From Glaciibacter superstes DSM 21135 (GTDB lineage Bacteria; Actinomycetota; Actinomycetes; Actinomycetales; Microbacteriaceae), in the NCBI RefSeq assembly GCF_000421145.1, contig NZ_ATWH01000002.1, positions 310,001 through 374,000 on the forward strand: a stretch of 64,000 nt of DNA, given 5' to 3'. Shown piece by piece: positions 24,456-25,429 of this stretch. The number at the start of each line of letters is the position of its first letter. The first letter of the stretch is position 1. Under the pieces are notes generated by a model. That model saw only the letters and a list, made by a program, of their open reading frames with translations. It searched no databases and had not been told where the DNA came from. The position numbers and the translations under genes are program-made.

Positions 24456-25172
24456 ATGACGGAAACCATCAAAGTAGACATCTGGTCTGATATCGCGTGC
24501 CCGTGGTGCTACATCGGCAAGCGCAAGTTCGAAAGCGGCGCAGCGTCTTTCGGCGCCGCAACGGGTGATGGCGCGCCAGACGTGGTCATCGAGTACCACA
24601 GCTACGAGCTTTCGCCCGATACCCCTGTCGACTTCGACGGCAGCGAGATCGACTTCCTCGCCAAGCACAAGGGGATGCCGGCCGACCAGGTGCAGGGGAT
24701 GCTCGACCGCGTCACCGGCATCGCCGCCGACGTCGGCCTCAACTACGACTACGACGCCCTCCAACACACCAACACCGTCAAGGCACACCAGCTTTTGCAC
24801 TACGCGAAGGCGCACGGCGTTCAGCTCGAGGCGGTTGAGCGGCTGCTCAAGGCCTATTTCGTCGAGGGCAGGCATGTCGGCCGGATCGAAGACCTCGCCG
24901 ATCTCGGAGCCGAGGTCGGACTCGATCGCGACGACATCGTGCGTTCGCTGACCGCCGACGAACACCTCGCCGCAGTTCGAGCCGACCAGGCACTCGCGGG
25001 GGAGTACGGCATCAACGGCGTGCCCTTCTTCGTCATCAACGGCAAGTACGGCGTGTCGGGCGCCCAGGATCCTGAGACGTTCGCCGACGTGCTCAGGCAG
25101 GTCTGGGCAGAAGAGACCACCGACGTCGACACCACAACAACCACATCCACAACCGAGGAGCAGACCGCATGA
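24456..25172 (+). CDS. DsbA/FrnE-family oxidoreductase
   Basis: This is a 238-residue cytoplasmic thioredoxin-fold protein with a helical insertion. The redox motif CPWC is at residues 15-18 in WSDIACPWCYIGKRKFE, and the cis-Pro loop is NGVPFFVINGKYGVSGAQDP. This is the FrnE type of DsbA, which includes disulfide isomerases and polyketide-linked oxidoreductases. There is no signal peptide. The C-terminal 20 residues are Thr-rich low complexity. I chose the ATG at 24456; a GTG at 24441 is an alternative. It is coupled by ATGA to a tiny Cys-rich gene, which suggests a shared redox task. Confidence 0.88.
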   Translation: MTETIKVDIWSDIACPWCYIGKRKFESGAASFGAATGDGAPDVVIEYHSYELSPDTPVDFDGSEIDFLAKHKGMPADQVQGMLDRVTGIAADVGLNYDYDALQHTNTVKAHQLLHYAKAHGVQLEAVERLLKAYFVEGRHVGRIEDLADLGAEVGLDRDDIVRSLTADEHLAAVRADQALAGEYGINGVPFFVINGKYGVSGAQDPETFADVLRQVWAEETTDVDTTTTTSTTEEQTA

Positions 25173-25327
25173 GCGAGACCACCAGCACCATCGACACTGC
25201 CACAGTCGACATCAACGTCACCGACCCGCAAGACGCCGCACGGACGGCAGATGGCCGCCCAATCATCGCGATGCTGGGTGAGGCCGAGGCCGGCGGATGC
25301 TGCGGTGGCGGTTCCTGCGCGATCTAA
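25169..25327 (+). CDS. 52-residue Cys-rich microprotein
   Basis: This small gene overlaps the stop of the DsbA-like gene (ATGA). The product is MSETTSTIDTATVDINV, then a short linker, RPIIAMLGEAEAGG and a terminal CCGGGSCAI. The three Cys residues lie within the last nine positions, resembling metal-binding or thiol-exchange tails. Ser/Thr-rich composition in the head resembles the tail of the preceding protein. Coding character is supported by the overlap, in-frame termination and high third-position GC. I infer either a substrate or partner of the oxidoreductase or a small metal binder. Confidence 0.7.
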   Translation: MSETTSTIDTATVDINVTDPQDAARTADGRPIIAMLGEAEAGGCCGGGSCAI

Positions 25328-25356: not shown

Positions 25357-25429
25357 TTCGACGGAGATTCTGCCCAAAGACGGGGCGAATCGGCTCGAAA
25401 CACCGCGCTGGAGCGAAATCTCCGTCGAA
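25357..25429. repeat. 13-bp perfect inverted repeat between convergent genes
   Basis: TTCGACGGAGATT at 25357-25369 and AATCTCCGTCGAA at 25417-25429 are exact complements separated by 47 bp. The element lies between the Cys-rich microprotein and the convergent ybaK-like gene, where it could act as a two-way terminator structure, though T-runs are absent. Confidence 0.6.

What the first reader, a model, noticed from the sequence alone, without database searches (positions are those of the whole stretch)
24456..25327. DsbA/FrnE-like gene coupled to a 52-residue CCGGGSC microprotein
A gene too short for usual annotation overlaps the oxidoreductase stop by ATGA and ends in CCGGGSCAI. Coupling to a thiol-disulfide enzyme, together with three terminal Cys residues, suggests a dedicated substrate, thiol carrier or metal-binding peptide. 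The Ser/Thr-rich regions at the gene junction are similar in style.
Basis: partly seen in the sequence, partly recalled or inferred. Interest (0 to 1): 0.55.

Follow-up and report, generated by a model that had tools for sequence, protein, structure and literature searches.

The report
Detached redox tail beside FrnE
A tiny 52-residue protein encoded right after a cell-interior disulfide enzyme is very probably that enzyme's own cysteine-bearing tail, split off into a separate gene, which would make an enzyme's electron-passing arm work as a free-standing partner.

Summary
An FrnE-type DsbA gene (24456-25172, CPWC) overlaps by ATGA a 52-codon ORF (25169-25327) ending GGCCGGGSCAI. The small gene is real: 54 of 57 genomes of the window's genus carry a recognisable homologue directly downstream of frnE.

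Its conserved core is P-x-hydrophobic-LLG...C-x4-C, not 'three terminal Cys'. The same core occurs in two forms that exclude each other. Of 312 distinct FrnE genes sampled from Actinomycetota, 59 have it fused at the FrnE C-terminus, 183 as a separate downstream ORF, 70 have neither, none has both. In a FrnE tree the separate forms lie in one clade whose sister is almost all fused. The fused tail is the CXXXXC tail of Deinococcus FrnE, which a review reports to reach the active site of another FrnE molecule and form a Cys244-Cys22 disulfide (PMC8945050, passages).

Best explanation: gene fission turned FrnE's C-terminal redox arm into a translationally coupled microprotein that regenerates FrnE in trans. 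The detachment is well supported; the biochemistry is inferred. The forms tested match no Pfam or NCBIfam model, and the paper searches named found no description. Novelty: new variant of a known kind.

The parts
24456..25172 (+). frnE: DsbA-family oxidoreductase of the FrnE type, 238 aa, without its own C-terminal CX4C tail
   Evidence: PF01323 E 3.2e-38; D. radiodurans FrnE 5cnw/5cp1 E 3.9e-56, SCO1869 3gl5 E 4.4e-37
24498..24509 (+). CPWC active site (C15, C18)
   Evidence: sequence; CPWC in 184 of 184 FrnE with a separate tail ORF, one of them a repeat
25116..25169 (+). non-conserved Thr-rich C-terminal extension of FrnE, where fused homologues carry linker plus tail
25155..25160 (+). GAGGAG, Shine-Dalgarno-like, 8 nt before the small ORF's ATG
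   Evidence: sequence; GAGGAG at the same place in many of the 29 genus ORFs
25169..25327 (+). detached FrnE tail microprotein, 52 aa, ATGA overlap with frnE
   Evidence: no Pfam or NCBIfam match up to E 1
25169..25258 (+). N-terminal low-complexity linker of the microprotein (residues 1-30)
   Evidence: variable in length and sequence; pN/pS 0.91
25259..25324 (+). conserved core PIIAMLGEAEAGGCCGGGSCAI (residues 31-52)
   Evidence: alignment; pN/pS 0.52
25301..25318 (+). CX4C motif, Cys45 to Cys50
   Evidence: invariant columns in 29 genus sequences; CX4C in 175 of 183 separate ORFs, CX5C only in the other 8

Best explanation
The small ORF encodes the C-terminal CX4C redox tail of FrnE as a separate protein. 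Shown by sequence: (a) FrnE enzymes in several phyla carry a fused tail of the form PLTLVGD...C-x4-C-A-[VI]; (b) in one Actinomycetota FrnE clade centred on Microbacteriaceae the enzyme mostly ends before that tail, and a small ORF, usually start-stop overlapped with frnE, carries the same core behind a free-form linker; (c) the two forms exclude each other in the sample. Inferred: an ancestral fission inside the linker of a fused FrnE produced the pair. Termination-reinitiation at ATGA would couple their synthesis. The peptide would dock its PxxxLLG segment near the FrnE active site and use C45/C50 to resolve and re-reduce (or re-oxidise) the CPWC disulfide, as the drFrnE tail is proposed to do between molecules, linking FrnE to an upstream reductase such as the thioredoxin system.
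For: Mutual exclusion over 312 distinct FrnE: fused 59 (54 CX4C, 4 with looser Cys spacing, 1 degenerate CGPDGG), separate 183, neither 70, both 0; separate ORFs were sought from -45 to +130 nt of the FrnE stop. Cross-scoring by HMM: a model of separate cores scores 15 of 18 fused tails above the best of 461 unrelated CX4C windows, and a model of fused tails does so for 107 of 153 separate cores. Profile-profile comparison of the two core alignments: probability 95.5, E 1.6e-8 for one comparison. The tail of solved drFrnE reads APLTMLGQDAPAEGCEDGQCAVP and that of SCO1869 PLKLIDDGGAEACGPDGCAVP; the separate ORF of L278 reads GPLQMVGADDAATCEDGVCALP and that of L210 APFTLIGDPAAEACGPDGCAIP. Tree of 192 FrnE cores, midpoint-rooted: the 93 rows labelled separate lie in one clade (SH-aLRT 99), sister (SH-aLRT 89) to a clade with 17 of 18 fused. 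115 of 128 core-HMM hits in 199 family genomes lie just downstream of a listed frnE on the same strand. In 155 of 184 (one a repeat) the ORF starts at -1, but other offsets use all three frames, so a conserved frameshift fusion is unlikely. The AlphaFold model of a fused FrnE is confident except for the tail (last two 10-residue blocks pLDDT 62 and 53), that is, a flexible arm; the model matches drFrnE 5cp1 and 5cnw first (E 5.0e-24, 5.9e-24). Literature: drFrnE tail near another molecule's active site, Cys244-Cys22 disulfide, loss of the C-terminal Cys lowers TrxR-dependent DTNB reduction (PMC8945050, passages).
Against: No expression, interaction or activity data. The shared core is only about 22 residues, so its homology rests on position, mutual exclusion and intermediates as much as on score. 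The window's own CCGGGSC type is the most divergent: several own-genus cores are among the lowest scorers against the fused-tail model, linked mainly by L233 (separate), L324 (a fused GGGGGCCGGSCCG tail, on a long branch) and adjacency. 70 of 312 FrnE have neither form (most sampled Microbacterium; G012 and G022 of the own genus), so the tail is dispensable or replaceable. A Paracoccus relative has no Cys tail, and its next annotated gene is a glutathione S-transferase. L268 and L274 are fused inside the separate clade, so fission may not be a single clean event; the tree needs 12 changes for 'separate', at least 6 forced by well-supported branches. 13 of 128 core hits are not beside a listed frnE. 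The review also states that the C-terminal Cys of drFrnE are not needed for DTT-driven insulin reduction.
Confidence: 0.7

Rival explanations
1. The microprotein is a dedicated client or substrate of FrnE (the enzyme forms or breaks its C45-C50 disulfide) with its own function elsewhere, for example as a diffusible thiol carrier or redox signal.
For: Conserved adjacency and coupling; a free peptide could diffuse; one orphan-like copy away from frnE in G358 (L368).
Against: The same core is part of the enzyme itself in 59 of 312 FrnE and was found in both forms in none, which fits a part of the enzyme better than a substrate. In the genus the only non-adjacent hits were 2 weak ones, E 0.003-0.005.
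Confidence: 0.15
2. The peptide is mainly a metal-binding or metal-delivery peptide (Cu, Zn, Cd), with FrnE keeping its thiols reduced.
For: The own-genus type is CC-rich; a CopZ-like HMA protein in genus g222 carries a look-alike N-terminal PPLNLLGD...GGCCGGGGCG module, upstream of a frame that reads like a copper ATPase. drFrnE expression rises after cadmium (PMC8945050).
Against: 140 of 183 separate peptides have only two Cys, mostly in contexts such as CEGDSC or CVDGVC, a poor metal site by itself (inference). The five neighbouring ORFs scanned are RecO, UppS-type, tRNA-editing domain, Dus and HD-domain genes, not metal genes.
Confidence: 0.08
3. The small ORF is a decaying remnant of a former fused tail, no longer functional.
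For: Some lineages have neither form; what reads as a relic frnE locus exists in G391 (L369).
Against: Both Cys and the hydrophobic-LLG segment persist across the family while the linker drifts; core pN/pS is 0.52.
Confidence: 0.04

Closest known systems
FrnE subfamily of DsbA (cd03024 per PMC8945050), D. radiodurans FrnE DR_0659 (5cnw, 5co3, 5coh, 5e59, 5xwh, 5cp1)
   Same: P0002 aligns with it over residues 2-220 (E 3.9e-56), with the CPWC site and GVPFF loop; the drFrnE tail has the same PLTMLG...CX4C-AVP core as the separate ORFs.
   Different: In drFrnE the CX4C tail is fused; here it is a separate gene product.
SCO1869 of Streptomyces coelicolor (3gl5)
   Same: Same family; tail ...PLKLIDDGGAEACGPDGCAVP.
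   Different: Tail fused.
FrnE of D. maricopensis and Streptomyces roseofulvus
   Same: FrnE without a CXXXXC tail, as P0002 (PMC8945050).
   Different: Whether a separate tail ORF follows those genes was not checked here.
Swinging C-terminal Cys arms of ribonucleotide reductase (NrdA) and mercuric reductase (recalled, no call)
   Same: A flexible C-terminal Cys pair passes electrons to an active site, across subunits.
   Different: There the arm is part of the enzyme; no homology claimed.

Membership tests
FrnE-type DsbA (for P0002) | DSBA thioredoxin-like domain with CPxC near the N-terminus | tested here: met
   PF01323 E 3.2e-38; CPWC at residues 15-18
FrnE-type DsbA (for P0002) | closer to FrnE structures than to periplasmic DsbA | tested here: met
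   5cnw E 3.9e-56 and 3gl5 E 4.4e-37 against DsbA chains 2mbt and 3h93 at about 6e-4
FrnE-type DsbA (for P0002) | C-terminal CXXXXC (present in many, not all, FrnE) | tested here: not met
   no Cys after the active site in P0002; the motif is in the next ORF. The source says 'many', so it is not defining
FrnE-type DsbA (for P0002) | cytoplasmic, disulfide reductase/isomerase activity | not testable with these tools
   activity needs a bench assay; no signal-peptide program was run
FrnE CX4C tail module (for the 52-aa protein) | CX4C at the C-terminus | tested here: met
   C45-C50 invariant in 29 genus sequences; 175 of 183 separate ORFs
FrnE CX4C tail module (for the 52-aa protein) | hydrophobic P-x-[hydrophobic]-x-L-[LV]-G segment before CX4C | tested here: met
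   PIIAMLG; core alignments; cross-HMM for the family as a whole, weak for several own-genus cores
FrnE CX4C tail module (for the 52-aa protein) | acts on the FrnE active site | not testable with these tools
Known small-protein family | match to a curated family | tested here: not met
   P0001: 0 families in NCBIfam and Pfam up to E 1. Five other forms: 0 of 5 in NCBIfam, 0 of 5 above cut-off in Pfam (one DUF7622 at E 0.081, 13.4 bits against a cut-off of 28.2)

The most novel reading that the evidence does not exclude
A whole bacterial family runs a disulfide enzyme whose electron-relay arm is a free, translationally coupled microprotein: a 'redoxin' reduced to a linker and one CX4C loop. Because it is detached, it may diffuse and serve partners beyond FrnE (a general low-mass electron shuttle), and in lineages such as the window's genus it may have gained metal chemistry through extra cysteines.
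Probability: 0.25. Interest if true: 0.8.

Novelty: new variant of a known kind. Interest (0 to 1): 0.6.

Why it matters
It turns an ORF that the two curated libraries searched do not cover into a part with a predicted partner, site and chemistry. It gives a natural experiment on FrnE: the same tail in cis, in trans and absent, in close relatives. The drFrnE proposal that the CX4C tail regenerates the active site could be tested by adding or withholding a 52-residue protein. It also shows how a redox arm can become a gene of its own by fission inside a disordered linker, and tells annotators that ORFs of about 30-90 aa after frnE in this family are likely genes.

Tried and rejected
Frameshift fusion: rejected as the general rule, because separate ORFs start at offsets from -11 to +100 in all three frames. 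RiPP precursor: nothing points to it; the five neighbouring ORFs scanned are RecO, UppS-type, tRNA-editing domain, Dus and HD-domain proteins, but no search for modification enzymes was made. Chance ORF: rejected. First filter (CX4C within the last 22 residues) missed many true ORFs and was replaced after reading the misses. First background for the cross-HMM test appears to have held true microproteins (background scores up to 42 bits); a clean one was made. L093 passed the HMM threshold but was judged by eye a spurious ORF in Microbacterium and moved to 'neither'; in the tree it is still labelled separate. L258-L261 scored below the threshold and were added to 'separate' by eye; L315 (CGPDGG) was moved by eye to 'fused'. 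A recount found two genes counted twice (L251 = L215, L262 = L234), so the 314 became 312. Stretches left out of the core model by eye: L075, L093, L100, L105, L128, L141, L225, and L115, which repeats the window's own gene. Non-adjacent core hits: G267 is beside an frnE that was not in the listed places (L148); ten others were fetched: L369 reads as a relic locus, L374 sits at a contig start, L375 and L376 look like unrelated proteins, L370, L372 and L373 hold an frnE homologue, L371 has a partial second copy, L368 is a possible orphan, L377 was not resolved. The hit in G321 had been read as an unrelated frame (L154); one weak hit in G429 was not read. Of the 731 plasmid records with a match (40 listed) six were read. 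Papers: the drFrnE papers of 2013 and 2018 are not held and are known here only through the review; passages on a Listeria DsbA protein (PMC10715225) were read and not used.

Full report
What is in the window. Around the finding lie a RecO gene, a UppS-type prenyltransferase gene, the FrnE-like gene and the small ORF on the + strand, then a tRNA-editing-domain gene on the - strand, and Dus and HD-domain genes on the + strand. The genome has 4.8 Mb in 38 contigs; its nearest named relatives by this FrnE are mostly Microbacteriaceae such as Okibacterium, Mycetocola and Subtercola. FrnE (24456-25172) is a DSBA-domain protein with CPWC, closest among solved structures to D. radiodurans FrnE. Its C-terminus is Thr-rich and it has no Cys after the active site. 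The small ORF (25169-25327) overlaps by ATGA, has GAGGAG 8 nt before its ATG and encodes 52 residues.

The small gene is real. A protein search gave homologues in the genus. Of 29 small ORFs extracted (the window's included), all follow FrnE, the 28 others with FrnE 62-71% identical to the window's, and 26 start at the -1 overlap. With a profile (A1) 54 of 57 genus genomes have a match at E 0.01 or better, and in all 54 one match lies directly after frnE; the two further matches are weak and elsewhere. Of the three others, G044 has a divergent form (CEGDHC) beside frnE, and none was found in G012 and G022. Only M1, C45, G46 and C50 are invariant in 29 sequences; P31, I33, L35, L36, G42, G43, C44 and G48 are 90% or more.

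It is far wider than the genus. I read downstream of 80 named FrnE loci and of FrnE loci of the family sample: 29 new loci returned and 57 fetched. About ten genera whose FrnE places were not listed were left out. The same kind of ORF occurs in Herbiconiux, Agreia, Leifsonia, Subtercola, Curtobacterium, Frigoribacterium, Okibacterium, Agromyces, Naasia and others, in Gordonia and Williamsia, and in two of three Solirubrobacter records. It is separate in 54 of the 80 named loci and in 67 of 74 distinct family loci brought in by FrnE similarity. The common core is xxxxLxxLGxxxAxxCxGDxCxxP. Of 183 distinct separate ORFs, 175 have CX4C and 8 CX5C only, 140 have two Cys only, and lengths run from 32 to 92 aa; 155 of 184 (one a repeat) start at -1. 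Sampled Microbacterium mostly have neither ORF nor tail. A short core profile (A2) hit 123 of 199 family genomes; 115 of the 128 places lie just downstream of a listed frnE on the same strand, while frnE itself was found in 172 of the 199 at E 1e-30.

What it is. FrnE proteins elsewhere carry the same core fused at their C-terminus: 18 of 29 phylum loci by the CX4C test, 39 of 86 distinct loci newly added from the order and class samples, and four of six named plasmid records read (Arthrobacter, Priestia, Lysinibacillus, Rhizobium). Of the other two, a Streptomyces plasmid has the separate form, and Paracoccus has no Cys tail and a glutathione S-transferase gene next. The solved proteins drFrnE and SCO1869 have the fused tail. 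Some pairs are almost the same text: drFrnE PLTMLGQDAPAEGCEDGQCAVP, separate L278 PLQMVGADDAATCEDGVCALP; SCO1869 PLKLIDDGGAEACGPDGCAVP, separate L210 PFTLIGDPAAEACGPDGCAIP. The own-genus type also has a fused counterpart, GGGGGCCGGSCCG in L324. In 312 distinct FrnE the counts are: fused 59, separate 183, neither 70, both 0. The raw script table, on 314, was fused 54 + 4, separate 181, neither 75, both 0; changes by eye: L093 out of separate, L258-L261 into separate, L315 into fused; then two repeats dropped. Separate ORFs were sought only from -45 to +130 nt of the FrnE stop. The sample was drawn by similarity to P0002, and part of it (the genus loci and L145-L158) through the microprotein, so these are not frequencies in nature, and related genes are not independent.

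Statistical support for the match. Cross-scoring against 461 unrelated CX4C windows put 15 of 18 fused tails and 107 of 153 separate cores above the best background window. Profile-profile comparison gave probability 95.5 and E 1.6e-8. Several own-genus cores are among the lowest scorers, so for the window itself adjacency and intermediates carry more of the weight.

History. In a quick ML tree of 192 FrnE cores with the tails removed, rooted at the midpoint, the 93 rows labelled separate (92 after removing L093) fall in one clade of 117 rows (SH-aLRT 99) that also holds 22 neither and 2 fused. Its sister (joint node SH-aLRT 89) is a clade of 17 fused and 1 neither. The label 'separate' needs 12 changes on the tree, 6 of them forced by starred branches, against 64 for shuffled labels. 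Fused forms in Deinococcus, Bacillota and Alphaproteobacteria make fused the likely ancestral state. The two fused rows inside (L268, L274) may be retained or re-fused. The disordered linker, Thr-rich on both sides of ATGA in the window, is where the cut lies.

How it probably works. [quoted passage not shown] A genome paper notes the same CxxxxC in Metabacillus FrnE (PMC11164402, passages). An arm that already works between molecules could be cut free without losing its site, and the AlphaFold model of a fused homologue leaves the tail poorly placed (pLDDT 62 and 53 in the last two blocks, mean 90.7). Hence the proposal: the coupled peptide docks its PxxxLLG segment at FrnE and uses C45/C50 to regenerate the CPWC pair. 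Steps shown: gene pair, conservation, shared core, mutual exclusion, clade structure. Steps inferred: translation, binding, electron transfer, in vivo role.

Novelty. The forms tested have no Pfam or NCBIfam match above cut-off. Searches for FrnE with disulfide and Deinococcus, drFrnE, FrnE with small protein, with CXXXXC and with Microbacteriaceae, DsbA with microprotein, DsbA with small open reading frame and Actinobacteria, and gene fission with thioredoxin and small protein showed no paper on it in the listings seen; the library lacks most subscription journals. FrnE and its fused tail are known; the free-standing coupled form is, to that extent, a new variant.

Noticed in passing
25357-25429: Dispersed palindromic element of about 73 nt just after the small ORF: conserved ends TTCGACGGAGATT...AATCTCCGTCGAA with a variable interior. 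24 places for one 15-mer end (12 per strand, up to 1 mismatch) in the own genome against 1 and 0 for the reversed control; four copies read, the window's included, have 73-74 nt.
   Followed up: partly
L338 (same gene as in L153), L339 and L340, three genomes of genus g222: CopZ-like HMA proteins with an N-terminal CCGGGxC module; L338 and L340 (2 of 30 loci read) also show an LNLLGD segment before it, much like the own-genus microprotein, and in L153 the next frame reads like a copper ATPase (not searched). Many other family CopZ proteins have a different short Cys extension (DLGLTD..SGCxC).
   Followed up: partly
L189, L190, L206, L208, L214, L216, L217, L226, L242, L243, L374: A subset of the microproteins continues after CX4C with a second similar stretch such as HHEQAVINRRLDEDLV; meaning unknown.
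   Followed up: no
L368 1183-1317 (genome G358): An orphan-like microprotein (SPIGLDLLGDTDAGACSGGFCVLPTEK) away from frnE in a genome whose frnE has no adjacent tail ORF.
   Followed up: partly
L378 1845-2042 (Streptomyces griseorubiginosus plasmid): The separate ORF after a DsbA family oxidoreductase here seems to hold a repeated core, the first copy with one Cys lost (TGIDGTC), the second CIDGVC; annotated as a hypothetical protein.
   Followed up: no
genome G381 (contig C1), genome G313 (contig C2, L371): Two FrnE copies close together in G381, and a partial second FrnE end with its tail ORF in G313, suggesting local duplication of the pair.
   Followed up: no
G000:C10:153706-154323: A second, distant FrnE-like protein in the own genome (29% identity, E 1.3e-24); its tail and neighbours were not read.
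   Followed up: no
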